Below the pieces are notes generated by a model. The model saw only the letters and a program-made list of their open reading frames with translations, was not told where the DNA came from and did not search any database. Source: Flavobacteriia bacterium (lineage in GTDB: Bacteria > Bacteroidota > Bacteroidia > Flavobacteriales_D > Crocinitomicaceae). Taken from it: a stretch of 43,502 bases of DNA. Positions 27,969 through 40,826 of this stretch are shown in pieces. Position numbers and translations under genes: made by a program. The stretch is taken from the NCBI GenBank assembly GCA_947455255.1, contig CANGOA010000007.1:1-43502 (forward strand), written 5' to 3'. Position 1 is the first letter of the stretch; every line of letters starts with the position of its first letter.

Positions 27969-28802
27969 TTACTTCGTCCCAAATACATAATTTAGTTGAA
28001 ATCCTAAAATGGAATAGTCATTAAAGGCTAAATTTGTTCGTTGTTTATTTGTAACCCCTAGAGATGGTGGACTAGTATTTATATCATGTCCACCCATCCA
28101 TGGTAGATTAAATTCTTTTTGACCCGCAAGATAAAGCATTAAATCTAATTTTTTCAATGCTTTTATAGGTTTAATTTTAAAACCTAATCTAAAACGGTAT
28201 CGATGTAAGCCATTTGGAGAATAATAACCATCATAACTACCATCATCCTTGTAATACATCATCGATTCACCTCCTAGATAATAATACAATATCATTTGTG
28301 CGAAGGGTTCAAATTCCAATGGCCATTTTCGATTATCATATGATAATTTTGATCCCAAAGTAATTCGTGAATGATATTTTTCCATGGATGGGGTAAAATA
28401 TTGGAAGGTCATATTCTCTTCTAATTCAAGTTTTTTGTTGAATTTGAAAATGTACTTTACACCAATGGTTGGTCTATTAAAATAAATTGCTCCTAAGTAA
28501 ATTTTATTGCGATATGCTTGATTATATTGTGGACTCCAATTATTTATATACAAAGCATCCCCAAACATCAAAATAAATTGTTTCGTCAATTTATAATTGA
28601 AGGTCAAATCATTTTGCATAAAATTAAAGATGTGCCGTCTTGAATCAAAACACATCAAATTAAAATTATCGATATAGATTTTTTTGTTAACCTTAAAATA
28701 GAGGTAACTACTATATTCAAATTTCTTTTCACCGTTAATATCTTGGGCAAAAATCAATGTTTGAAAGGATAGAAATAATATAATTAAAATGCGATTAATC
28801 AT
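27969..28802 (-). CDS. Outer-membrane beta-barrel protein (DUF2490-like), last gene of the pgs operon
   Basis: 277 residues from the second ATG (28802); an ATG at 28808 is equally possible. A signal peptide ends near FAQ. The mature protein is built of alternating polar and aromatic strands, with FEYSSYLYFKVNKKIY, RHIFNFMQNDLTFNYKLTKQF, YRFRLGFKIKPI and a C-terminal ...FQLNYVFGTK, which fit a 10-12-strand barrel like DUF2490. Its start overlaps the end of the lipoprotein gene by a few bases, so it belongs to the pgsBCW operon. It may be the outer-membrane exit or anchor for the polymer; that is inference. Confidence 0.75.
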   Translation of the reverse strand: MINRILIILFLSFQTLIFAQDINGEKKFEYSSYLYFKVNKKIYIDNFNLMCFDSRRHIFNFMQNDLTFNYKLTKQFILMFGDALYINNWSPQYNQAYRNKIYLGAIYFNRPTIGVKYIFKFNKKLELEENMTFQYFTPSMEKYHSRITLGSKLSYDNRKWPLEFEPFAQMILYYYLGGESMMYYKDDGSYDGYYSPNGLHRYRFRLGFKIKPIKALKKLDLMLYLAGQKEFNLPWMGGHDINTSPPSLGVTNKQRTNLAFNDYSILGFQLNYVFGTK

Positions 28803-29499
28803 TGACATTAAAATCTACATTTTTAATAGCATCGTTATTTTTTAAAACAGAAACGATGGTGTCGATTAACAAATATGGTGGTGTTGCAACGCTATTTTTA
28901 GAATATACATATATTTTGTATTTACCAACAGGTAGACTATTAAAAACATAATTTCCGTTATAATCTGTGTAATTTGCATTGGTATTTGTAGAATCATTCA
29001 TGTCTGTCAAATACACTTTTTCATGTATCGCAGTATACGAAGCTCCCAATTTGTGTCCAGTAATATTCCCAGATATGGATGCATTTCCTTTTATTGGTGT
29101 ATTATCTGCAATTTTAAAAACTCCTGCATCCACTAATTGATTGCTTTTTGTAATTGTTACTGGAATAGTAATCGGAATTTGACTTGAACTTAGCATAGTT
29201 GTATCGTCAGAATAAACATATAACTTATAATTTCCTGGCACTAAATGATTGAAGTTAAAGGAGCCATCAAAACCTGTTTTTACTTTATCTCCATATCCTT
29301 TTCCATCTTCAAAAATGATATAAACATCTGCGTTTGCATATAGTGATTCTTCTCTTAATACAGAATAATTAGAGTTATATTTTCTAATTTTTACTACACC
29401 TTTAATTCCAGAATTCCCTCCATATCCTGGTGTTTTATCACATGAACTAAAGAAAATAGATAAACCTGCTAAAAGGGTACATATAACTGATAATTTCAT
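28795..29499 (-). CDS. Lipoprotein with two carboxypeptidase-regulatory-like beta domains
   Basis: 234 residues. The lipoprotein signal ends FFSSC (Cys20). Two related beta-sandwich units follow, at about 33-115 (GIKGVVKIR...GFDGSFNFNHLVPGNYKLYVYSDD) and 140-232 (ISGNITGHK...DYNGNYVFNSLPVGKYKIYVYSKN). Both have the G-x-(Y/F)-x-F-x-x-L-x-x-G-x-Y-x-(I/L)-Y-V pattern of prealbumin-like domains that often stabilise surface or transport proteins. It sits 2 nt after the preceding gene and overlaps the barrel gene, so it likely works in the periplasm or at the outer membrane for the pgs system. Confidence 0.82.
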   Translation of the reverse strand: MKLSVICTLLAGLSIFFSSCDKTPGYGGNSGIKGVVKIRKYNSNYSVLREESLYANADVYIIFEDGKGYGDKVKTGFDGSFNFNHLVPGNYKLYVYSDDTTMLSSSQIPITIPVTITKSNQLVDAGVFKIADNTPIKGNASISGNITGHKLGASYTAIHEKVYLTDMNDSTNTNANYTDYNGNYVFNSLPVGKYKIYVYSKNSVATPPYLLIDTIVSVLKNNDAIKNVDFNVND

Positions 29500-29501
29500 T
29501 G

Positions 29502-29900
29502 TTATTTCGTTTTTATTTTGGTGTTATATTCAATTAATATTAAGGCGGATTTTTTCTTATCCTCTAAAGAAAACTCATAGGTATGCGCTCCTTTGGGTAG
29601 ACTTAAATATATCACATTGGAATTACCAGGTATCAATTTTTTCTCATCTACATATTCTGTTTTTTGTGATTTTTCACCAGATATTTTGTAGGATTTTACA
29701 ATAACTCCTTTTTCTTTTACATTTAAAATAATTGGTTTACCAGATTGATCTTTAAAATCTAATTCTGCTTTAATGATAATTTTAAGTTGCGTTGTATCGG
29801 TTGTATTTAAAACAAATTTTTTCTCGTTCGTTATTCGATGAAATTTTACAATTGAATTTTTCTTGTTTAAATATTTTACACGAACTGTATCTAATGGCAT
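29502..29900 (-). CDS. Beta-rich protein without signal peptide, in frame with upstream gene after one TGA
   Basis: 132 residues from ATG at 29900. No family recognised. It has no signal sequence, yet its neighbours are all secreted. It is in the same frame as the gene at 29919-30413, separated only by TGA (29921-29919) and six sense codons (KNLTPS). Its pattern (DTVRVKYLNKK...LKIIIKAELDF...LPKGAHTYEFSLEDKKK) resembles the upstream protein (HQVGIVRLQGKK...IEVLLRVRLED...VPPGQHVIKIYKGDTEQ), so the two look like tandem copies of one domain. It may be the second half of a split or read-through protein rather than an independent gene. Confidence 0.6.
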   Translation of the reverse strand: MPLDTVRVKYLNKKNSIVKFHRITNEKKFVLNTTDTTQLKIIIKAELDFKDQSGKPIILNVKEKGVIVKSYKISGEKSQKTEYVDEKKLIPGNSNVIYLSLPKGAHTYEFSLEDKKKSALILIEYNTKIKTK

Positions 29901-29918
29901 TGATGGCGTAAGGTTTTT

Positions 29919-30413
29919 TCAATCTGGTTGGTCCTTGTCTTTGAAGTATTTAAATTCAGCATGAATTTTTTGTTCGGTATCCCCTTTGTAAATTTTAATG
30001 ACATGTTGTCCCGGTGGAACATGAATAAATACTTTGCCAGCAGCACTCGGTTTACCTTTTAATTTAGCGTTTTTGAATTTTAAATGTTTTGAAACTTTCT
30101 CACCTTTAAGTGTATCCACTTTCATTTTCTTATCGTCTAATACGTGCTGTATCACATATGGCAAACTACTTTTTGTAGTGTCTTCCAAGCGTACACGTAA
30201 TAATACTTCTATTTTTCCAGGTCCCATTACTACCAATTCTGTTCTTTCTTTTTCAGATAATGCATAGTATGTTAGTGTTTTTTTACCTTGCAGACGTACG
30301 ATACCAACCTGATGTTTTGGTTTAATTTTTTTACCTTTTATGGTCGATTTTTGTCCAAAAACTAAACTTGTTGTACTAAATAGTAATGCAAGAAATAACG
30401 TGAATACTTTCAT
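29919..30413 (-). CDS. Secreted beta-rich protein of the pgs operon
   Basis: 164 residues from ATG at 30413, which starts a signal peptide (KVFTLFLALLFSTTSLVFGQ); the frame also opens at 30443 inside pgsW. The mature part is basic (many Lys) and beta-rich, ending HVPPGQHVIKIYKGDTEQKIHAEFKYFKDKDQPD. It lies 4 nt after pgsW. The excess of Lys would suit contact with a polyanionic polymer such as poly-glutamate; this is inference. See the next gene for the in-frame TGA. No known family was recognised. Confidence 0.75.
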   Translation of the reverse strand: MKVFTLFLALLFSTTSLVFGQKSTIKGKKIKPKHQVGIVRLQGKKTLTYYALSEKERTELVVMGPGKIEVLLRVRLEDTTKSSLPYVIQHVLDDKKMKVDTLKGEKVSKHLKFKNAKLKGKPSAAGKVFIHVPPGQHVIKIYKGDTEQKIHAEFKYFKDKDQPD

Positions 30414-30417
30414 AATT

Positions 30418-31524
30418 TTAATCGTTTGTTTTAATAATTTCATTTCCTAATGCGTGTTGTTTTTTATCTAAATAGATAGTAACTAATAACAAACCTACTA
30501 AGAAAAATAAAGCAACTCCTACTATTCCAACTTGGTATTTTAATGAATAGTATAATTTGCCTTTACCAATTTCTGGCAATGGAATAGGTTCTAATGGTAA
30601 ATCATATTTATTCATTAATTGTTCGACGTTTTTCAAATGTATGATTGGAATATTCTTTTTGGCCATTTCAAACATTACTCCTTTTTTATCAGGAAAATCT
30701 TTTAATTTTAATGTTTCATGATAGCCAGCACGAATGGCATCTCCATTGATATCACTACCATTACTGGCAACTCCACCTCCAATATTTATAAATGCTTTAA
30801 TGTTTTTGTGTTGGTTAAATAAGTGTAGTCTTTTTGAAATATTTCCTTCAAAACTTCCTGTATTAATGTATGGTAGATGATTTCTATTAATCGCTGCTTC
30901 GACTAAATCTCGGCCTTCTCCACTTAAAGCTCTTCCGATATCTAAATTACCTCCCATGGATGCAGCAATGGAGTGGTTTGTGAAAATTTTATCCTCAAAT
31001 AATTCGTGTTCCATATCAACCCATGTAAATTCTGGATCATTGGCTCCCCACGATGATGCCGTCACTGATGAAATAATGATTGGTTTAATTCCAAGCGTTT
31101 GAATAGCTGCTAATGCTGCGACATTTAATCCCGGGAACGAACCAGTCATACAAATTGCTACTTTATCTCCTTTTTTTAAGTGTGCATCTTTCAAAAGTTG
31201 TACAATCATTCCTCCAAAATTTGGATTCATGGTAGATGCTTTGATAGGTAATGAACCACTTCCTGTAGTAATTGGTGTGTATTGTTCTCCGATTAACCCT
31301 GTTTCGTTTGGATCATTGATGTTATCTACAAAGTGTACATTTTCAAAACGTTCATTTTTTAAATGTAAAAGTGCTTTTTGAGTTAGCCTAGAAGCTGCTA
31401 TTTTTTCGTTATACCATTCTTCCTTGACATTTTTTTTCGTTGTTTCAACAACATATAATAATCCTATAGAAAGTAAAGCTAACGTTGCAAGTATAGGAGT
31501 AGAACGGATGGATATTTTTGCCAT
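30418..31524 (-). CDS. pgsW: Poly-gamma-glutamate system protein PgsW
   Basis: 368 residues. A membrane helix at about 11-27, a large periplasmic or cytoplasmic domain, and a second helix at about 335-356 (QVGIVGVALFFLVGLLLVTIYLD). Blocks such as ETGLIGEQYTPITTGSGSL, KASTMNPNFGGMIVQLLKDA, GDKVAICMTGSFPGLNVAAL and FINIGGGVASNG fit the 'poly-gamma-glutamate system protein' family found next to pgsB and pgsC in Gram-negative genomes. The biochemical role is not known. It starts 3 nt after pgsC. Confidence 0.88.
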   Translation of the reverse strand: MAKISIRSTPILATLALLSIGLLYVVETTKKNVKEEWYNEKIAASRLTQKALLHLKNERFENVHFVDNINDPNETGLIGEQYTPITTGSGSLPIKASTMNPNFGGMIVQLLKDAHLKKGDKVAICMTGSFPGLNVAALAAIQTLGIKPIIISSVTASSWGANDPEFTWVDMEHELFEDKIFTNHSIAASMGGNLDIGRALSGEGRDLVEAAINRNHLPYINTGSFEGNISKRLHLFNQHKNIKAFINIGGGVASNGSDINGDAIRAGYHETLKLKDFPDKKGVMFEMAKKNIPIIHLKNVEQLMNKYDLPLEPIPLPEIGKGKLYYSLKYQVGIVGVALFFLVGLLLVTIYLDKKQHALGNEIIKTND

Positions 31525-31527
31525 GTG

Positions 31528-31983
31528 TTATATATTTGAAAGTAAAGCTCCTCCGAAGCAAAGAATAACTGCTAATCGCACAATGATAGAAGTAATTGCC
31601 AACATTGCTAGCGTTTTTGGATAACCTTGTTTTGCTGACCAGTGTGCTATTAATCCTGGAATTACCCATCCAATTGCACTAAATTCAGCAGTGCTATTAT
31701 CTGTATTGAAGACCAAAAAATGATGAGATAATATGGATAACAGTGTACCAACTAATAATGCTACAACCATTTGTCGACGACCAAATAAGAAGGTGAACTT
31801 TGAAATCAATAAAATGATTAAATAGGTGGCAAGTGAAATAATTACGGTTCCAATTAATTTATCGGGAGTATTTAATTGTAAGGCTATATAACCAGGTATA
31901 ATGACACCCCCGGCTGCCAATCCAAATGCTTCTATGAAAAACAAACTGAGTACAATTCCCAGTGTGATTGCTAATTCTACCAT
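31528..31983 (-). CDS. pgsC: Poly-gamma-glutamate biosynthesis protein PgsC/CapC
   Basis: 151 residues, the family length, with about four to five membrane helices. The start VELAITLGIVLSLFFIEAFGLAAGGVIIPGYIAL and the ending GWVIPGLIAHWSAKQGYPKTLAMLAITSIIVRL are PgsC/CapC hallmarks. PgsC forms the membrane partner of PgsB in polymer synthesis. Its ATG overlaps the pgsB stop by one base (TAATG), so expression is coupled. Confidence 0.95.
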   Translation of the reverse strand: MVELAITLGIVLSLFFIEAFGLAAGGVIIPGYIALQLNTPDKLIGTVIISLATYLIILLISKFTFLFGRRQMVVALLVGTLLSILSHHFLVFNTDNSTAEFSAIGWVIPGLIAHWSAKQGYPKTLAMLAITSIIVRLAVILCFGGALLSNI

Positions 31984-33158
31984 TATTTTACTTGTTTACT
32001 TTCAAAATATTTAACCAATTCTGCACCACCTGCTCCCATGTTTCCAATTCCAACGATTGTTGTTTTCTTTTTGGAAGCATTACATAAATCGATGTACACT
32101 TCTTCTGTTGGCTTGCTTCCTATCGGAACAATCTCTTCTCGTTTAATTTTCTGTTTGATGCCCATTTCAACAACTAAATCAACCACATCACCAATGAGCG
32201 CAACCGAACTATAATTCAATTTAAGTGCAATAAGTTCTATCAATTGCTTTGCACGATCTTGTCGATCTTTACGTGTATTCAATAAAATGATGAGGTGTTC
32301 ATCAGCATCTACATGTTTGACAATACTGTTCCAAATCATCAACGAAGATTCAGGATCGTTTGCAGCAAAAGCGTTGTAAAAGTCAATGCGTTTATCGTCA
32401 TAGTTTACAGTCACTTTCGTCAGTACTCCCTCGTCTGGAATAGTCTTTTTCATTTCTGCTAATGCAAGCGCTCGGTCGACGCCTAATTCTGCACAAATAT
32501 CCAATGCCAAGGATACATTTTCTTTGTGTTCGATGTAGGTAAATCCTACCATATCTTCATCCGAAATCGTACTCGCAAGTGCTTGATGAATCTTAGTATT
32601 TCGTTTCTTCGCAACCGCTTCAAACATGTCTAAACGTCGATCTTCACTGGTAAAAATCTTTGAGTTTTTAGGAATTGTTCCGCACAACGCTCGACCAACA
32701 TCGTCTAAACCTGGTCCCATGACATCTAAGTGGTCTAGACGAACATTGGTAATTACTCCAATCGTTGACTTAACCATTTGTAGTTCGGTAATTCGTTGGT
32801 ACTGTGGTTGCAAAGCCATACATTCAATAATCAATACTTGTGCTTTGTTTTTCGCACAGTATTTAATCACTTTAAGTTGCTCTAGTATGTTTGCTTTTTC
32901 ATTACGATGAATTGCTGCTTCGCTTCCATCTGGAAGAATGATTCGAGGAAAAGTCCCAGTAACTTTTGTATATGTTTTATATCCTCCAACCCTTAATCCT
33001 GCTCCAATCAAGCGTGTCACACTCGATTTCCCACGTGTACCATTGACATGTATACGCACGGGTATTGATTTCACATACCGTTGATGTATCTGATATTCAA
33101 TAATTCCATACACCAGAAGTATTGATAAAAGAATTAATGTAACGTAAAAACTTATCAT
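31983..33158 (-). CDS. pgsB: Poly-gamma-glutamate synthase PgsB/CapB
   Basis: 391 residues. An N-terminal membrane helix (2-21) is followed by a Mur-ligase-like ATP-dependent amide ligase. The P-loop is HVNGTRGKSSVTRLI (GTRGKS at 40-45), followed by GGYKTYTKVTGTFPRIILPDG, ECMALQPQYQ and ITNVRLDHLDVMGP, all typical of CapB. It joins glutamates through gamma-carboxyl links with PgsC. This is the first gene of a seven-gene run. No PgsA/CapA, CapD or CapE gene is present in the window. Confidence 0.95.
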   Translation of the reverse strand: MISFYVTLILLSILLVYGIIEYQIHQRYVKSIPVRIHVNGTRGKSSVTRLIGAGLRVGGYKTYTKVTGTFPRIILPDGSEAAIHRNEKANILEQLKVIKYCAKNKAQVLIIECMALQPQYQRITELQMVKSTIGVITNVRLDHLDVMGPGLDDVGRALCGTIPKNSKIFTSEDRRLDMFEAVAKKRNTKIHQALASTISDEDMVGFTYIEHKENVSLALDICAELGVDRALALAEMKKTIPDEGVLTKVTVNYDDKRIDFYNAFAANDPESSLMIWNSIVKHVDADEHLIILLNTRKDRQDRAKQLIELIALKLNYSSVALIGDVVDLVVEMGIKQKIKREEIVPIGSKPTEEVYIDLCNASKKKTTIVGIGNMGAGGAELVKYFESKQVK

Positions 33159-33277: not shown

Positions 33278-34537
33278 ATGAAACTACAAAAACAAGTCAT
33301 CATAGCATTTGTATTTTCTTGTTTGTGTTTCTTTTCATTTTCTCAAAAAATTTCGTTAAAACAAGCACTTATACTGGCTGTAGAAAAAAATCCTGACCTC
33401 AAAATTTTAGCTTGTAATGTAACAATGCATGAAGCAGATACTATCACAGCAGGTTTAAGACCGAATCCTATTTTCAATACACAAGATTTATTTTTACTGA
33501 ATTCTAACTATTTTCCAGCTGGTTCTAGTTTGTTTGGTCCAAAAAATAGACAAACTTGGTTTCAATTAACCAAACCGTTCATTTTACCCGCACAACGAAA
33601 AAATAAAATTGCTTTAGCACATCAAAACTTAGTACAGGAACAAAAAAATTATAAAGAATCGGAACGAAACGTACTAATAAATGTCGCAAATCAATGGATT
33701 AATGTTTGGTATGCTCAAAAGCAGTTAGACATCTTAAAAGAAGCTAAGGAAAATTTAGACTCACTTGTGTTAATTAATAACCTACGCTTTAAAAATCAAG
33801 TTATATCTCATTCTGATTTAATGCGTGTAGAACTATTAGCAAATCAATTCTCAGTAAAAATCAAAACAGCTACCCAAAGTGTTCAAAATTCTATGATGGA
33901 ATTACGTTATACACTTGGGGGCGATGAAAAATTAGAAATTGATACGACAGACAATTTAATTTTTTCAAAATATAACTTTACAAATTATGATAGTTTACTA
34001 CGTTTTGCACTAATGTATCGGAGCGATATTCAAGTTGCAAAATCTACTATCGATGTTGCAAATGCAAATATTAAATTTCAAAAAACATCCGCATTACCAA
34101 CACCTGAGTTGGGATTTATTTTAAATCCTCAAAATACGCTACCTTATGCAGGGTTTTACGGGACACTTGTATTTCCAATTTTTTCTCGGAATCAAGGTGA
34201 GATTAAAAAATCAAACATCCTAAAAAATCAATCAGAAATTGCATTACTTGCGAATGAGAAATTAGTTCAAACGGAATTATTGAATGCATACCAAATGTTT
34301 AAACAACAAAAAGAGAACGTGGATCTTTATACGGATTATATTCAAATTTCGGATAAAATTTTAGCAAATGTGCGTTACAATTATTTAGCTGGAGGTACCA
34401 ACATTGTCGATTATCTTGAAGCACAAAGAAGCTGGATAGATACGCAACAACAATTTTTTGAAATCCAATATAATTTCCGAGGTAGTTTATTGCAAATGCT
34501 TTATACAGCTGGAATTATCCAACAATTAGCCCAATAA
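33278..34537 (+). CDS. TolC-family outer-membrane efflux protein
   Basis: 419 residues. Signal peptide ends near FSFSQ (about 22). Two repeats of the outer-membrane efflux family follow: SLKQALILAVEKNPDLKILACN near the start, long helices with VANQWINVWYAQKQLDIL, and a second half with NYLAGGTNIVDYLEAQRSW near the end. It is the outer-membrane channel of the tripartite pump encoded by the next genes. One base separates it from the adaptor gene. It is the CusC/CzcC-type component by context. Confidence 0.92.
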   Translation: MKLQKQVIIAFVFSCLCFFSFSQKISLKQALILAVEKNPDLKILACNVTMHEADTITAGLRPNPIFNTQDLFLLNSNYFPAGSSLFGPKNRQTWFQLTKPFILPAQRKNKIALAHQNLVQEQKNYKESERNVLINVANQWINVWYAQKQLDILKEAKENLDSLVLINNLRFKNQVISHSDLMRVELLANQFSVKIKTATQSVQNSMMELRYTLGGDEKLEIDTTDNLIFSKYNFTNYDSLLRFALMYRSDIQVAKSTIDVANANIKFQKTSALPTPELGFILNPQNTLPYAGFYGTLVFPIFSRNQGEIKKSNILKNQSEIALLANEKLVQTELLNAYQMFKQQKENVDLYTDYIQISDKILANVRYNYLAGGTNIVDYLEAQRSWIDTQQQFFEIQYNFRGSLLQMLYTAGIIQQLAQ

Positions 34538-34538
34538 C

Positions 34539-35543
34539 ATGATGTATAGAATAGTGTTTAGTATTTGTTTTTTTTTAGTAGCAGCTTGTTCTTCTAAAGC
34601 CAAATCAAAAAACCAGGATTATTTATCTCCAATCGTTTCTAAAAATGGCACGATTATTACTTTTCAAAGTCAAAAAATTTCAAATAATTTTGATGCCGAA
34701 AAATTGACTTCTAGTTTGTTAATTGCGGATTTAACCTCGCCTGCGAAAGTTGCCGCAACTGTTGAAAATTCTGGAGAAATTTCAAACCAAAACATCGTAT
34801 TGTTTGACAATTCGGACTTAGCAAGTAGTTATTCGATGTTAAAACAACATTTGATGAATATGAATCAAATTAAAAATGTAACTATCAAACAACGAAAAAT
34901 AGAATACGATCGTATCTATGATTTGAAAATGCATGGTGCAGCATCAGGGAAGGATTTATTAGAAGCACAAACCGCATTAGCATTGGAAGAAACAAATTTA
35001 GCCAATGAAAAAGCTGCATTAATTGAGCATGAAACGAAGTTTAAAATGAATGGATTTAATCCTGAAAAGCTTCGTAAAGCAAAAAATGGTGCAGTTTTTA
35101 TTATCTGTGATATCCCTGAAAACCTAATTCATGCTACCAAAGAGGGGCAACATTGTTCCTTGAAATTTAATGCATATCCAAATGAAACGTTCGAAGGAAA
35201 AATAGAAGAAATTACGGATGTGGTTGATCCTCAAACCCGTATGATTAAACTAAGAATTAGTGTGAAAAACACGGATGATATTCTAAAAGCTGGAATGTTT
35301 GCCATGGTTTCTTTTGGAATTAATGAAGGTAAACATCTTACTATCAGCAAATCTTCGGTTATTACCATTCAAGGAAGAAATTATGCATTTGTAAAAACAT
35401 CTTTGCTCACTTTTGAACGAAGAGAAATTTCAATTGGAAATGAAATTAACAATCGTATTATCGTCTTTAGTGGAATTATAGAAGGAGAAAACGTTGTTTC
35501 TTCCGGGTTAATGCAGTTAAAAGGATTATCATTTGGTTATTAG
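34539..35543 (+). CDS. RND efflux periplasmic adaptor lipoprotein
   Basis: 334 residues. A lipoprotein signal ends LVAAC (Cys17). The middle has an alpha-hairpin (about 98-165; LKQHLMNMNQ...KDLLEAQTALALEETNLANEKAAL) flanked by half-lipoyl strands. A beta-barrel domain with FEGKIEEITDVVDPQTRMIKLRISV and a membrane-proximal end complete the HlyD/CusB-type fold. It should link the inner-membrane pump to the TolC-like channel. It is shorter than many CusB proteins and has no extra metal-binding extension. Confidence 0.9.
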   Translation: MMYRIVFSICFFLVAACSSKAKSKNQDYLSPIVSKNGTIITFQSQKISNNFDAEKLTSSLLIADLTSPAKVAATVENSGEISNQNIVLFDNSDLASSYSMLKQHLMNMNQIKNVTIKQRKIEYDRIYDLKMHGAASGKDLLEAQTALALEETNLANEKAALIEHETKFKMNGFNPEKLRKAKNGAVFIICDIPENLIHATKEGQHCSLKFNAYPNETFEGKIEEITDVVDPQTRMIKLRISVKNTDDILKAGMFAMVSFGINEGKHLTISKSSVITIQGRNYAFVKTSLLTFERREISIGNEINNRIIVFSGIIEGENVVSSGLMQLKGLSFGY

Positions 35544-35545
35544 TT

Positions 35546-35854
35546 ATGAGACAAGTACAATTATTTATAGACGCTGATATACTTCGTAAAAATCGACCAT
35601 TATACGAATATGTAATTTATAAATTGGTGCAGGAAGGAGTGAGTGGTGCAACCGTTTTTAGAAGTGTATTAGGTTTCGGAGAAGAGAAAGTCATTAAACG
35701 TCCGGATGAATTGTTCAGTTTCGATGGCGCTACGATGTTAATTACGTTTATCGAAACAGAGGAAAAAGTGAAATCTGTTTTAAATCTTCTGAAAGAGGAT
35801 ATACAAAAATGTTTGGTGATTACTCATCCAGTAGAACGTTTTATCTATGATTAA
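35546..35854 (+). CDS. DUF190 PII-like protein
   Basis: 102 residues. The pattern VQLFIDADILRKNRPLYEYVIYKLVQEGVSGATVFRSVLGFG is that of DUF190, small trimeric proteins with a PII-like fold. It starts 2 nt after the adaptor gene and overlaps the pump gene by 8 nt, so it is made together with the pump. PII-like proteins have been reported beside heavy-metal efflux genes, where they could sense a nucleotide or metal and adjust the transporter; this role is inferred here from position. Confidence 0.85.
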   Translation: MRQVQLFIDADILRKNRPLYEYVIYKLVQEGVSGATVFRSVLGFGEEKVIKRPDELFSFDGATMLITFIETEEKVKSVLNLLKEDIQKCLVITHPVERFIYD

Positions 35855-38800
35855 ACAACTCTTAATATTTAGTCTTAAAAAACGCTGGGTAATCATTGCC
35901 ATAAGTGCTTTACTTATGGTACTAGGTTTTTTTAGCTTTCGAGAATTAAAAATCGAAGCATATCCAGATATTGCAGATACTAACGTAATTGTCATAGCAC
36001 AATTTCCTGGAAGAGCATCCGAAGAAGTTGAGCAACAAGTGACAATCCCCATCGAACGAGCGCTTCAAAACACACCCAATATTTTAGATCGACGTAGTAG
36101 AACTATTTTTGGGTTGTCTGTAGTACAGCTTACATTTAAAGATGGTACGGATGACTATTTTGCGAGACAGCAAGTCATTGAGCGCTTATCTGCAGCGCAA
36201 TTACCAGATGGAGTGTTACCTGAACTTGCACCACTTTCCACAGCAGTTGGAGAGATTTTACGTTACGTAGTAGATGCACCTTCTACATATACGCCTACTG
36301 AATTAAGGGATTTACAAGATTGGGTAATTAAACCTTCACTATTACAAGTGCCTGGAATAGCTGATGTTGTTACGTTTGGAGGGCCGATGAAACAATTTCA
36401 TATTCTTACTGCACCTGAAAAATTGCGTAAGTATGATTTAAAATTGGCGGATATCATTAATTCCATCAATGAGAATAATAAAAATACGGGTGGTGGTATT
36501 ATAGCACGCGGAGGACAAGGCTTTGCGATTCGAGGATTAGGAGCAATCAAGGATATTAATGACATTGAAAATATTGTAATTAAATCGGATAATGGTTTTC
36601 CGGTTTATGTAAAAGACATCGCTTCCATTGAAATCACTCCACCTTCACCAAGCGGTGTGTTAGGATACAAAACTTCAGAGGAAAAAGAAGATGTTAAAAG
36701 TGGGGTAGAAGGGATTATTTTACTTAGACGTTATGAAAATCCAAGTGAGGTATTAGAAAAATTAAAAGCAAAAATCAACGATATTGAGTCTAATGAATTA
36801 CCAGCCGAGGTAAATATTAAACCATTGTATGATCGTAGTTTTTTAATAGATCATTCCTTAGAAACGGTTGCACATACTCTGTTTGAAGGTATTTCTATTG
36901 TCGTTATTATCCTTATTTTCTTTTTGGGTAGTTTTCGAAGTGCGTTGGTTGTTGCAATTACTATTCCTTTTTCCTTATTATTTGCGTTTATATTAATGCA
37001 TTTGACAGGTATTCCTGCGAACTTACTTTCCTTAGGTGCAATCGATTTTGGAATTATTGTCGATGGTGCCTGCGTAATGACGGAGTACCTCATAAGGAAG
37101 TATCGATCGGCCACTCCAGAAGATAAACGACAAGGAATTATTAAAATTACTTTGATGGCAGCTCAAGAAGTTGGTAAAGAAATTTTCTTTTCGGTGACCA
37201 TTATTATCTTGGCATATATGCCGATTTTATTGATGACACGCGTGGAAGGTAAACTCTTTTCACCGATGGCATTGACTTTAGCGTTTGCGGTGATTGGTTC
37301 GATGATTGCTTCATTAACGTTCATACCTGTATTGATTTCATTTGTGTATAAGAAAGATTTACAAGACATCCATAAAAAAATCAAAAAACCTAAAAATTAT
37401 TTGTTGGATAAAATCGATAAAGGGTATGAACACATGATGAAAAAATTCATGGTGAATTATAAGAAAACAACTATTATTACAGCATCTATTGTGATTTTAT
37501 TATCCCTTTGGAGTTTTAAATTAGGGACTGAATTTTTACCACCTTTAGATGAAGGTTCAATTTTTTTACGAGCTAATTTTCCTTCAGGCATAACCATTCA
37601 AGAAAATGCAAAGTATGCTCCTAAAATTAGAAGAATCATCAGTAAATACCCACAAGTAGATTTTGTAATTACGCAATCTGGTCGCAACGATGATGGTACG
37701 GATCCCTTTCCAGCAAACCGTAATGAGATTTTAATTGGGTTGAAAAATTACGATTTATGGAGCGATAAAATTTCTAAAAAAGACTTAGTTTCAAAAATTA
37801 AAGATGACTTAAAAAAGAATTTACCGGGTGTTTCTATTAATTCAGGACAACCAATTATTGACCAAGTAATGGAAATTGTAACAGGCTCTGCTGCGGATTT
37901 AGCTGTTTCTATTGTGGGAGATAATTTGACTGTAATGCGTCAAAAAGCAGATAGTATTGTTGAAATTGTCAATAATACCCGTGGTAGCGATAATGTAAAC
38001 ATAGAACAAGAAGGACCGCAAGATCAATTGGCTATTGATATTGACCGGACAGCTGCTGCTCGTTATGGAATTAACATTGCCAACATCCAAAATATGATTG
38101 AAGCTGCAATTGGCGGTAAAACAATTTCAACGCTATATGACAATTACAAAAGATACGATATTGTGATTCGATTTTTACCTCAATATAGAAATTCCATAGA
38201 TGACATAAAAGACCTTCAAATTCCTTCTATAAGTGGTTCGATGATTCCTGTAAGTCAATTGGCGAATGTGCACTTTGTTCAAGGACAAACAAACATTTAC
38301 CATTATGGAAGTAAACGAATGATTACAGTTCGTACAAATATTAAAAACAGGGACCAAGGTAGTTTTGTAAGAGAATTAAGAAAGAAAATAGAACATAAAA
38401 TAAATATTCCTCGAGGTTATCGTTTAATGTACGGTGGTCAATTTGAGAATTTAGAACGTGCCTCTTCTCGTTTATTAGTCATTGTTCCATTAGTTTTAAT
38501 AGGGGTGTTTATTATTCTTATCATGCTGTACAAAGGGGACTTACGAGATGCTTCTTTAGCAATGTCTTGTGTATTATTCTCTTTACCGGGTGGTGTTTGT
38601 TTCCTATTATTTAGAGGATATTATTTCAATATTTCTGCAGGAGTAGGATTTGTTTCGCTATTTGGAATCGCCATCATGACAGGAATTCTCTTTGTCTCTG
38701 CCTTTAAACTCAAGCAGGAAGAAGGTAAATTGAGTTTATTTAATGCCATTTTAGATTCTTCTGTAGAACAAATTAATGTGCGTATCATGGTGATCACTTT

Positions 38801-39014
38801 GGCTGTTATGGGATTAGTTCCTGCAGCTATTTCATATGGTATTGGTTCAGATGTCCAACGACCATTAGCGACCGTAATAATCGGAGGACTGATAAGTACA
38901 ATGATATTTGCGCCAATTTTACTACCAAGTATTTATTACTGGACAGAGAAAAAACGCGTTGAGAAAAAAGAAAGTTTAGGTAAATTAGATGAGTTGGATG
39001 AGTTTGAAGATTAA
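35847..39014 (+). CDS. CzcA/CusA-family heavy-metal RND efflux pump
   Basis: 1055 residues, full length for the family, with 12 expected membrane helices and two large periplasmic loops. The helix-4 motif DFGIIVDGACVMTEYL carries the two Asp and one Glu used for proton relay in heavy-metal pumps; the N-terminal block QFPGRASEEVEQQVTIPIERAL and the mid-protein GTEFLPPLDEGSIFLRANFP are CzcA/CusA signatures. It exports divalent (Co/Zn/Cd) or monovalent (Cu/Ag) ions; I cannot decide which. It forms a tripartite system with the two upstream genes. Confidence 0.95.
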   Translation: MIKQLLIFSLKKRWVIIAISALLMVLGFFSFRELKIEAYPDIADTNVIVIAQFPGRASEEVEQQVTIPIERALQNTPNILDRRSRTIFGLSVVQLTFKDGTDDYFARQQVIERLSAAQLPDGVLPELAPLSTAVGEILRYVVDAPSTYTPTELRDLQDWVIKPSLLQVPGIADVVTFGGPMKQFHILTAPEKLRKYDLKLADIINSINENNKNTGGGIIARGGQGFAIRGLGAIKDINDIENIVIKSDNGFPVYVKDIASIEITPPSPSGVLGYKTSEEKEDVKSGVEGIILLRRYENPSEVLEKLKAKINDIESNELPAEVNIKPLYDRSFLIDHSLETVAHTLFEGISIVVIILIFFLGSFRSALVVAITIPFSLLFAFILMHLTGIPANLLSLGAIDFGIIVDGACVMTEYLIRKYRSATPEDKRQGIIKITLMAAQEVGKEIFFSVTIIILAYMPILLMTRVEGKLFSPMALTLAFAVIGSMIASLTFIPVLISFVYKKDLQDIHKKIKKPKNYLLDKIDKGYEHMMKKFMVNYKKTTIITASIVILLSLWSFKLGTEFLPPLDEGSIFLRANFPSGITIQENAKYAPKIRRIISKYPQVDFVITQSGRNDDGTDPFPANRNEILIGLKNYDLWSDKISKKDLVSKIKDDLKKNLPGVSINSGQPIIDQVMEIVTGSAADLAVSIVGDNLTVMRQKADSIVEIVNNTRGSDNVNIEQEGPQDQLAIDIDRTAAARYGINIANIQNMIEAAIGGKTISTLYDNYKRYDIVIRFLPQYRNSIDDIKDLQIPSISGSMIPVSQLANVHFVQGQTNIYHYGSKRMITVRTNIKNRDQGSFVRELRKKIEHKINIPRGYRLMYGGQFENLERASSRLLVIVPLVLIGVFIILIMLYKGDLRDASLAMSCVLFSLPGGVCFLLFRGYYFNISAGVGFVSLFGIAIMTGILFVSAFKLKQEEGKLSLFNAILDSSVEQINVRIMVITLAVMGLVPAAISYGIGSDVQRPLATVIIGGLISTMIFAPILLPSIYYWTEKKRVEKKESLGKLDELDEFED

Positions 39015-39029
39015 TATCGAATTACTGAA

Positions 39030-39584
39030 ATGAGTTATAAAGATTTAATTATTAAGTATTTAATGATTATGGGGTTTGGCCTCATCATTTTTTATATTGA
39101 TGAAAAGGATTTTTTTCACTACAAATGGACATTAGCACTAATTGACGTATTAGCATTTTTCAAAGCTTGGTATTTTATTTATTTCAGTTACAAAAAAATC
39201 CTTCATATTTCCGAAAATAACATTCCTTATAATGGATATTTACGCTTTATGTTAATCAACATTTTCATGGTAATATTATCATTTGGAGTTGATTATATGT
39301 GTTTATACAAAGTTGATCACAATTGTTTTGTTGGGGTAAATAAACACTTTTCGTATTATGAGTTGGTTTTTGAATTCTGGTATTTTAGTGTGTTGAACTT
39401 TTCATTCTTCGGATACGGCTATTTAATGCCAATATCGGTTGCCTCTAAATTTGTTGTGTTACTTGAAGTAATACTTTCATTTACAACTGTTTTCTTTATT
39501 TTATCTGACTTTGTGAGCTTGAAAGAATCACTTTCAGATCAAATGAAAACGAAGAAGAAAAACAATAAGCGAAATGTGATGTAA
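39030..39584 (+). CDS. Potassium-channel-like membrane protein with altered filter
   Basis: 184 residues with about four membrane helices (7-22, 34-52, 72-92, 138-161). The last part, ELVFEFWYFSVLNFSFFGYGYLMP...SKFVVLLEVILSF, has the layout of a two-helix ion channel: pore helix, filter, second helix. The filter reads FFGYGY (126-131) where true potassium channels have TVGYGD, so Thr and Asp are replaced. It lies 15 nt after the pump gene, so it is probably in the metal efflux operon. It may be a degenerate or differently selective channel, or only a structural relative. Confidence 0.65.
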   Translation: MSYKDLIIKYLMIMGFGLIIFYIDEKDFFHYKWTLALIDVLAFFKAWYFIYFSYKKILHISENNIPYNGYLRFMLINIFMVILSFGVDYMCLYKVDHNCFVGVNKHFSYYELVFEFWYFSVLNFSFFGYGYLMPISVASKFVVLLEVILSFTTVFFILSDFVSLKESLSDQMKTKKKNNKRNVM

Positions 39585-40826
39585 TCATCCTTTCACTAAC
39601 TCAATCACCGTAATCTCAGGTAAAATACCAACCCTTCCTGGGAATCCTAAAAACCCAAATCCACGGTTTACATAAATATGTTGGTCGTTTTTTGGATATA
39701 ATCCTGCCCATTGTGGGTAAATGTATTTCACAGGACTCCATTTGATTCCAGGGATTTCAATTCCAAATTGCATTCCATGCGTATGTCCTGCTAATGTTAA
39801 ATGCACCTTTTTTGGATGAGGTATAGTTACCGCTTCCCAATGGGATGGGTCGTGGGATAATAATACTTTGAACGTTGAATCTTCGATCGGAGCAATGGCT
39901 TTATCCAAATCTCCATGTTTCACAAATCCACGTTTCCCCCAGTTTTCTACCCCAATCAACGCGATTTTTTCGCCGTCTTTTTCCAAATGTAAACTTTCAT
40001 TCAACAACAAACGGAAACCGATTTTACCATGAACATCTTTTAAATCTTGTAAATTTTTAGCTTTCGCTTCCTCTGACGGCCATTGTACATAATCTCCATA
40101 ATCATGATTCCCTAAGATGGAAAACTTTCCGTGTGGCGCGTCTAATTGCGAAAAATGCTCTATCCAAGGATCCATTTCGGTAGCAACGTTGTTTACTAAG
40201 TCACCCGTAAAAACAAGGATATCACTTTTCTGAGCATTGGCTAGTTCAATTCCTCTTCGAACTGCTGCCACATCGTCCAACGAACCAGAATGTATATCTG
40301 AAAGTTGCGTGATTTTAAATCCATGAAAAGCATCCGGTAAATCTTTAAAGGCAATTTTTACTTTGTGCACGCGGTAATCGTATTTTCCTTTGATCATTCC
40401 CCAAGCCGTTCCTACGAATGGAATAGCTGCCAATCCTAAAGCTATTTGACTCACAAATTTTCGTCGACCCCACATGTGTAAATCTTCCGAACCAACAGTA
40501 TGACGCATTTTTTGGATGCCTACATATCCACCTTGGATCAAACGAACAATATCTTCAATCAATAAAAATGGGGTAACAATGATTTTTGGAGCTAAGGAAA
40601 GAATAGCTAATCCCATGATGTAACTTCCGCCTTTTGGAGGTCCACCCGCCATTTTACCGGATGCACCTACGTATATGATAATCACCATTAATACGATGTC
40701 AAACAACCAATAGGCATAGTTTACATAGACTGCTTTGGGTCCTGTAAAAACCGTTTTCATTGCTTGAAAAACATATAAATCAACCAATAACCAAATGGCA
40801 ATAAAAATAAAAAAGCGAAAAATCAT
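39585..40826 (-). CDS. Membrane-anchored metallophosphoesterase
   Basis: 413 residues. Three to four N-terminal membrane helices (about 2-20, 38-55, 68-90, 126-142), then a calcineurin-type phosphoesterase: LSDIHSG (D177, H179), FTGDLVN (D209), LGNHDYGDY (N240, H241), LLSHDP and LAGHTHGMQFG. All metal ligands are kept. The build is that of YkuE/YaeI-type phosphodiesterases that act on membrane lipids such as UDP-sugar lipids. Single gene; its stop directly abuts that of the channel-like gene. Confidence 0.92.
   Translation of the reverse strand: MIFRFFIFIAIWLLVDLYVFQAMKTVFTGPKAVYVNYAYWLFDIVLMVIIIYVGASGKMAGGPPKGGSYIMGLAILSLAPKIIVTPFLLIEDIVRLIQGGYVGIQKMRHTVGSEDLHMWGRRKFVSQIALGLAAIPFVGTAWGMIKGKYDYRVHKVKIAFKDLPDAFHGFKITQLSDIHSGSLDDVAAVRRGIELANAQKSDILVFTGDLVNNVATEMDPWIEHFSQLDAPHGKFSILGNHDYGDYVQWPSEEAKAKNLQDLKDVHGKIGFRLLLNESLHLEKDGEKIALIGVENWGKRGFVKHGDLDKAIAPIEDSTFKVLLSHDPSHWEAVTIPHPKKVHLTLAGHTHGMQFGIEIPGIKWSPVKYIYPQWAGLYPKNDQHIYVNRGFGFLGFPGRVGILPEITVIELVKG

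What the first reader, a model, noticed from the sequence alone, without database searches (positions are those of the whole stretch)
27969..33158. Gram-negative poly-gamma-glutamate-type operon with four extra envelope genes and no PgsA
Seen: pgsB, pgsC and pgsW are followed without gaps by a secreted basic beta-rich protein, a related domain, a lipoprotein with two prealbumin-like domains and an outer-membrane barrel, all on one strand with overlaps or gaps of a few bases. Known: PgsB and PgsC make the polymer, and PgsA is the usual third component in Bacillus and relatives; PgsW occurs in Gram-negative sets with unknown role. Inference: the four downstream genes form the export and outer-membrane anchoring path of a Bacteroidota version. 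The polymer could be gamma-glutamate or a related polyamide.
Basis: partly seen in the sequence, partly recalled or inferred. Interest (0 to 1): 0.88.

Follow-up and report, generated by a model that had tools for sequence, protein, structure and literature searches.

The report
Polyglutamate operon with envelope-crossing genes
A freshwater Bacteroidota bacterium carries a compact, gained-or-lost gene block that probably makes the polyamide poly-gamma-glutamate and moves it across both membranes, using a periplasmic binding protein and an outer-membrane barrel that Gram-positive producers lack; how Gram-negatives export this polymer has not been worked out.

Summary
The operon is real. pgsB, pgsC and pgsW pass their NCBIfam cut-offs and are followed by envelope genes; no PgsA (PF09587) is found in the (77% complete) genome or in five other PgsW-positive Flavobacteriales. 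So there are three extra genes, not four. In all 12 loci of this type the order is pgsB-pgsC-pgsW-tandem protein-barrel; the transthyretin-like lipoprotein is confined to one family. In 296 phylum genomes PgsB and PgsW occur in the same 12; the tandem protein occurs in 7, always in this operon. The six-gene block is cleanly present or absent between dprA and a metallophosphoesterase gene within the genus. PgsB and PgsW trees put this type in one clade, apart from a second Gram-negative type (ggt-DUF6305-TRAP-AspA-pgsBCW, also in Fusobacteriota). The tandem protein is predicted as two CBM-like jelly rolls, is strongly basic, and matches cellulose-synthase BcsB among others. Best reading: a BcsB-like periplasmic guide plus a barrel exit for polyglutamate. 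New variant of a known kind; export itself is inferred.

The parts
31983..33158 (-). pgsB: Mur-ligase-like polyglutamate synthase, N-terminal membrane helix, P-loop NGTRGKSS
   Evidence: TIGR04012 422.5 bits over cut-off 222.7; PF08245; hydropathy
31528..31983 (-). pgsC: small integral membrane partner of PgsB
   Evidence: TIGR04011 127.4 bits; PF14102 CapC 112.5 bits; four hydrophobic segments
30418..31524 (-). pgsW: membrane protein with a helix at each end and a conserved alpha/beta soluble domain between; takes the place of pgsA in the operon
   Evidence: TIGR04332 320.4 bits; 13-sequence alignment with 30 invariant columns; AlphaFold2 pLDDT 88, pTM 0.84; no PDB match at E<=0.001
29502..30413 (-).
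   Evidence: searches (single frame, sense codon in three congeners; single ORF in 11 relatives; '1 TGA'), halves homologous by hhalign 99.4%, model pLDDT 85
28795..29499 (-). Lipoprotein (FSSC lipobox) with two transthyretin/prealbumin-like domains; only in family f1 of the loci seen
   Evidence: PF13620 41.9 bits, two stretches; PF17802; relatives L018-L021
27969..28808 (-). Predicted outer-membrane beta-barrel (279 aa, signal peptide)
   Evidence: Conserved at the same position in six Flavobacteriales; a different barrel family fills the slot in six other loci
27969..33158 (.). Whole presence/absence block, inserted between dprA (ends 27968) and, in G010, the metallophosphoesterase gene (window 39585-40826)
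   Evidence: Empty sites in G001, G007, G008: dprA directly followed by that gene with 3-42 bp between

Best explanation
This is a horizontally exchangeable operon for making and exporting poly-gamma-glutamate (or a closely related amide-linked polymer) in a double-membraned bacterium. Shown: PgsB and PgsC are the synthase pair; PgsW stands where PgsA would; the tandem beta-sandwich protein and a barrel-slot gene always accompany this PgsBCW clade. Inferred: PgsBC polymerise glutamate at the inner membrane and push the chain out. PgsW, anchored at both ends with its domain probably in the periplasm, is the synthase's outer-face partner in place of PgsA. The basic two-domain jelly-roll protein binds the polyanion in the periplasm and hands it on, as BcsB does for cellulose. 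The barrel is the exit through the outer membrane. In this family the transthyretin-like lipoprotein caps or anchors the exit or the polymer at the surface. In the sequenced strain the tandem gene carries a stop, so export there may be impaired, or the stop may be an assembly error.
For: Family scores over cut-off for PgsB, PgsC, PgsW. PgsB (over cut-off) and PgsW occur in the identical 12 of 296 phylum genomes. The tandem protein occurs in 7 of 296 and the same 7 of 355 genomes, all PgsW-positive and next to pgsW. Gene order is invariant in 12 of 12 loci. The block is present or absent as a unit. This type is one clade in the PgsB (99/98) and PgsW (100/99) trees, while family f44 holds both types, so the accessory genes follow the synthase and not the organism. 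Tandem protein: two homologous halves, CBM-like jelly rolls with BcsB among the PDB matches (E 5e-5 to 7e-4), pI 9.5-10 in all 12 sequences and the most basic class of exported protein in these loci. Both halves are under purifying selection. PgsA is dispensable for polymer synthesis in B. subtilis: PgsBC alone made L-rich polymer (PMC6029982).
Against: No chemistry was tested: polymer identity rests on family membership. Foldseek matches of the tandem protein have low whole-chain TM-scores (0.14-0.29) with large rmsd, so the BcsB likeness is of domain type only; many of the matches bind sugars, not polyanions. The window's barrel has no Pfam hit, and the two barrel families are not homologous by sequence. 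The other PgsW type lacks both genes, so Gram-negative PgsBCW can be accompanied differently. The tandem gene is interrupted in this very genome.
Confidence: 0.5

Rival explanations
1. The operon makes polyglutamate, but the polymer stays in the periplasm or is bound there (osmotic or ion buffer); the barrel is an ordinary porin and the basic protein a periplasmic binder.
For: No dedicated outer-membrane polymer channel family was recognised; the window barrel is small (279 aa). The basic charge fits simple retention as well as hand-over.
Against: A barrel-slot gene follows in 12 of 12 loci, filled by two unrelated barrel families, which argues for a needed outer-membrane function.
Confidence: 0.2
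2. The product is an amide-linked polymer other than poly-gamma-glutamate, or PgsBCW modify another surface molecule.
For: For the Francisella capBCA locus, whose third gene is named 'poly-gamma-glutamate system protein' (PMC5362203), a review doubts a role in capsule (PMC4688374).
Against: PgsB scores about 200 bits above an equivalog cut-off set for polyglutamate synthases; Fusobacterium nucleatum, a Gram-negative, is reported to produce polyglutamate (cited in PMC4497714).
Confidence: 0.2
3. In this strain the operon is decaying: the in-frame stop in the tandem gene marks loss of export, and only relatives have a working system.
For: In-frame TGA; the block is absent from 9 of 13 genomes of the genus, so loss or non-acquisition is common, although several of those assemblies are incomplete.
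Against: The other five genes are open, with very low pN/pS for pgsB and pgsW (0.02-0.06), and the part after the stop is as constrained as in congeners (0.10-0.15), so the stop is recent or an assembly error.
Confidence: 0.25
4. A PgsA equivalent is hidden nearby: the metallophosphoesterase at 39585-40826 adjoins pgsB in G010 and belongs to the broad phosphoesterase fold class that PgsA is also placed in (own knowledge).
For: PF00149 49.7 bits; adjacent to pgsB in L019.
Against: It is equally present at that place in congeners without the operon (G001, G007, G008), and no PF09587 match exists in the genome.
Confidence: 0.04

Closest known systems
Bacillus pgsBCA(E) / capBCAD polyglutamate synthase operons
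   Same: PgsB and PgsC homologues in the same order at the head of the operon
   Different: No PgsA and no CapD-type transferase in the operon; PgsW in third place; followed by a periplasmic tandem beta-sandwich protein, a barrel gene and, in one family, a lipoprotein
Francisella capBCA
   Same: Gram-negative; PgsB and PgsC homologues; the third gene bears the name given to PgsW family proteins (PMC5362203)
   Different: Described as a three-gene locus (PMC4688374); the sequence of its third protein was not compared here
Fusobacteriota-type PgsW locus (Cetobacterium somerae NZ_CP143320.1; five Bacteroidota genomes of this survey)
   Same: pgsB-pgsC-pgsW without pgsA in the operon
   Different: Preceded by gamma-glutamyltransferase, DUF6305, TRAP-type permease and AspA/AstE-like genes; no tandem beta protein and no recognised barrel after pgsW; separate in the trees
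Bacterial cellulose synthase BcsA-BcsB-BcsC
   Same: Works-like analogy: inner-membrane synthase, periplasmic multi-domain jelly-roll binder, outer-membrane barrel; BcsB is among the structural matches of the tandem protein
   Different: Different synthase chemistry and polymer; no TPR scaffold as in BcsC; no membership claimed

Membership tests
Poly-gamma-glutamate synthase (PgsB/PgsC) | PgsB over the equivalog cut-off TIGR04012 | tested here: met
   422.5 vs 222.7 bits
Poly-gamma-glutamate synthase (PgsB/PgsC) | PgsC over the equivalog cut-off TIGR04011, adjacent to pgsB | tested here: met
   127.4 vs 96.45 bits; 1-nt overlap
Poly-gamma-glutamate synthase (PgsB/PgsC) | Product is gamma-linked glutamate | not testable with these tools
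   needs chemistry
Bacillus-type pgsBCA operon | PgsA (PF09587) in the operon | tested here: not met
   No match in own genome nor in five PgsW-positive Flavobacteriales relatives, four of them 92-100% complete
PgsW (TIGR04332) family | Score over the cut-off and position after pgsBC | tested here: met
   320.4 vs 100 bits; after pgsC in 18 of 18 loci
This operon type (defined here) | Order B-C-W-tandem protein-barrel | tested here: met
   12 of 12 loci; tandem gene interrupted by TGA in the window copy
This operon type (defined here) | Tandem protein found only beside pgsBCW | tested here: met
   7 of 7 hits in 296 genomes, the same 7 in an overlapping draw of 355
BcsB-like periplasmic polymer guide | Sequence homology to BcsB | tested here: not met
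   No PDB sequence match below E 0.69; likeness is of predicted domain fold only
Outer-membrane beta-barrel (last gene) | Barrel family match | tested here: inconclusive
   None for the window protein; DUF2490 weak in L022; OMP_b-brl, Porin_4, BBP2_2 mostly weak in same-position proteins of other families

The most novel reading that the evidence does not exclude
Bacteroidota have a dedicated trans-envelope export line for poly-gamma-glutamate: a PgsA-free PgsBCW synthase, a new family of basic tandem jelly-roll periplasmic guides, and an outer-membrane barrel exit that has been swapped between unrelated barrel families, the whole moving between genomes as one cassette.
Probability: 0.42. Interest if true: 0.7.

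Novelty: new variant of a known kind. Interest (0 to 1): 0.52.

Why it matters
Polyglutamate synthesis is studied almost wholly in Bacillus, where there is no outer membrane. PgsB/PgsC pairs are known in some 250 bacterial species (PMC4497714), but I found no paper in the held library that describes how the polymer crosses a Gram-negative envelope, and none that treats PgsW or the tandem protein. A module with a sharp boundary, a conserved order and one clear binding candidate makes that question testable in a few deletions. It also shows that two different accessory sets attach to the PgsBCW core, which gives annotators a rule for separating them.

Tried and rejected
2) Hidden PgsA: PF09587 absent; the nearby metallophosphoesterase is a core neighbour, not part of the block. 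3) Gamma-glutamyltransferase (CapD-like) as a constant partner: found in G000 and G009 but not in G004, G010, G020 or G030, so not required. 4) PgsW fold: confident model, but no PDB match at E<=0.001 and no sequence match, so its role stays inferred. 5) Homology of the two barrel families: hhalign probability 2.9%, not shown. 6) The genome-contig scan with a single sequence found only three near-identical congeners, so the named-organism range of this type remains unknown. 7) Plasmid search: PgsW only in Cetobacterium; tandem protein nowhere. 8) Literature on PgsW or TIGR04332: nothing but one Francisella table.
Full report
OBSERVATION. NCBIfam and Pfam identify PgsB (TIGR04012, 422.5 bits), PgsC (TIGR04011, 127.4 bits; CapC PF14102) and PgsW (TIGR04332, 320.4 bits), all over curated NCBIfam cut-offs. 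The lipoprotein (28795-29499) carries two transthyretin/prealbumin-like stretches. The last gene (27969-28808) has a signal peptide and barrel-like sequence, but no family match of its own.

CORRECTION. They share a reading frame; a TGA at 29919-29921 separates them, and three congeners have a sense codon there with otherwise collinear sequence. All 11 relatives have a single ORF of about 300 aa; a profile search of the own genome finds it as one match with one internal TGA. Constraint on the part after the stop equals that in congeners (pN/pS 0.10-0.15), and TGA ends other window genes, so this is a recent mutation or an assembly error and not a changed code. Whether it is real cannot be decided from one assembly.

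THE MODULE AND ITS EDGES. In the genus, 4 of 13 genomes have pgsW, though some that lack it are incomplete. In G001, G007 and G008, which lack it, dprA is followed within 3-42 bp by a metallophosphoesterase gene; in G010 exactly the six genes pgsB-pgsC-pgsW-tandem-lipoprotein-barrel lie between those two; in the window a TolC/RND efflux block follows as well. The same six genes sit in another genus of the family at another place (L021). This block boundary is the strongest evidence that the downstream genes belong with pgsBCW.

DISTRIBUTION. In an even draw of 296 phylum genomes, PgsB over its cut-off and PgsW are in the identical 12 genomes (the many weaker PgsB hits are probably other Mur/FolC-type ligases). 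The tandem protein is in 7 of those 12 and nowhere else, and lies next to pgsW each time; an overlapping draw of 355 gave the same 7, while PgsW rose to 13 over the cut-off plus one broken fragment. Together with the close relatives this makes 12 loci of this type, all in the order B-C-W-tandem-barrel; the lipoprotein is in 5, all of one family. Six Flavobacteriales share one barrel family; the six loci of families f29, f44 and f48 have another at the same position, with weak barrel-family hits, and the two are not detectably homologous.

A SECOND TYPE. Five Bacteroidota genomes (L029-L033) and the Fusobacteriota plasmid of Cetobacterium somerae carry pgsBCW with upstream gamma-glutamyltransferase, DUF6305, TRAP-type permease and AspA/AstE-like genes and none of the genes described here (families were checked by Pfam in L031 and by annotation in Cetobacterium, and by gene order, size and start sequence only in the rest). 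PgsB and PgsW trees each separate the two types with one change (support 99/98 and 100/99), and family f44 contains both: the accessory set follows the synthase lineage, not the species.

PGSA. PF09587 is absent from all six PgsW-positive Flavobacteriales, from both f48 genomes and from G266, and present somewhere in 8 of 17. In f29 a T9SS-type secreted protein with PKD and PGA_cap domains lies about 5 kb downstream of the operon; elsewhere the matches are on other contigs or far away. So PgsA is not always present. Its lack is also not paradoxical: PgsBC without PgsA make L-rich polymer in B. subtilis (PMC6029982).

STRUCTURE. The tandem protein is predicted to be almost all beta, in two sandwich domains (pLDDT 85). 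Foldseek finds tandem CBM51, CBM22, PNGase-type and cellulose-synthase BcsB structures (E 2e-6 to 7e-4); whole-chain TM-scores are low, so this is a domain-type likeness. It is basic in all 12 sequences (pI 9.5-10, net +11 to +40); among 48 exported-like proteins in the Flavobacteriales loci the tandem proteins take six of the seven highest charge values. PgsW is predicted with high confidence as an alpha/beta domain between two terminal membrane helices, with 30 invariant columns, and without a significant PDB match.

MECHANISM. Shown: synthase identity by family, module integrity, exclusivity in the sample, order, charge and predicted fold. Inferred: PgsW as the outer-face partner of PgsBC; tandem protein as periplasmic guide for the polyanion; barrel as exit; lipoprotein as surface anchor or cap. 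The scheme is like BcsA-BcsB-BcsC in logic only. Main uncertainties: no chemistry, and the barrel's identity is circumstantial.

KNOWN OR NEW. PgsBC in Gram-negatives is known, with polyglutamate reported for Fusobacterium nucleatum (cited in PMC4497714). A Francisella third cap gene carries the PgsW-family name (PMC5362203), and the role of that locus in capsule is doubted (PMC4688374). I found no description of the tandem protein or of an export module, though most subscription journals are not in the library. I rate it a new variant of a known kind.

Noticed in passing
L101:12485-15487 (G093), and G289:C15 about 70679-71482: A secreted T9SS-type protein joining PKD, a PgsA/CapA domain (PF09587, 201.6 bits in the L101 protein) and a C-terminal sorting domain lies about 5 kb downstream of the pgs operon in family f29: possibly a PgsA-domain protein delivered to the cell surface by T9SS.
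   Followed up: partly
L023:12267-16046, L025:10625-14431, L026:11010-14786: A protein of about 1,260 aa related to C25 (gingipain/PorU-type) peptidases with a T9SS sorting tail sits beside the operon in families f29 and f44; in f48 a long T9SS-sorted protein of another kind takes that place (L027, L028).
   Followed up: partly
L029-L033 and L103 (Cetobacterium somerae plasmid): Second Gram-negative PgsW locus type: gamma-glutamyltransferase, DUF6305, TRAP-type permease, AspA/AstE-like protein, then pgsB-pgsC-pgsW; looks like a synthesis-plus-turnover or export set of its own.
   Followed up: partly
window 33278-39584: TolC / membrane fusion / DUF190 (P-II-like) / RND pump block beside the pgs block; its TolC gene is also next to pgsB in G004 and G009 but not in G010, so it is a second presence/absence block at the same site.
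   Followed up: partly
G000:C150:2643-4169 and G009:C22:21400-22926: Gamma-glutamyltransferase (PF01019) is found in two of four pgs-positive and none of four tested pgs-negative congeners; too few to tell whether it is linked to polymer processing.
   Followed up: no
G617:C12:2244-2588 (L110): A broken PgsW fragment (73 bits, internal TAA) in family f26, perhaps the remains of a lost locus.
   Followed up: no
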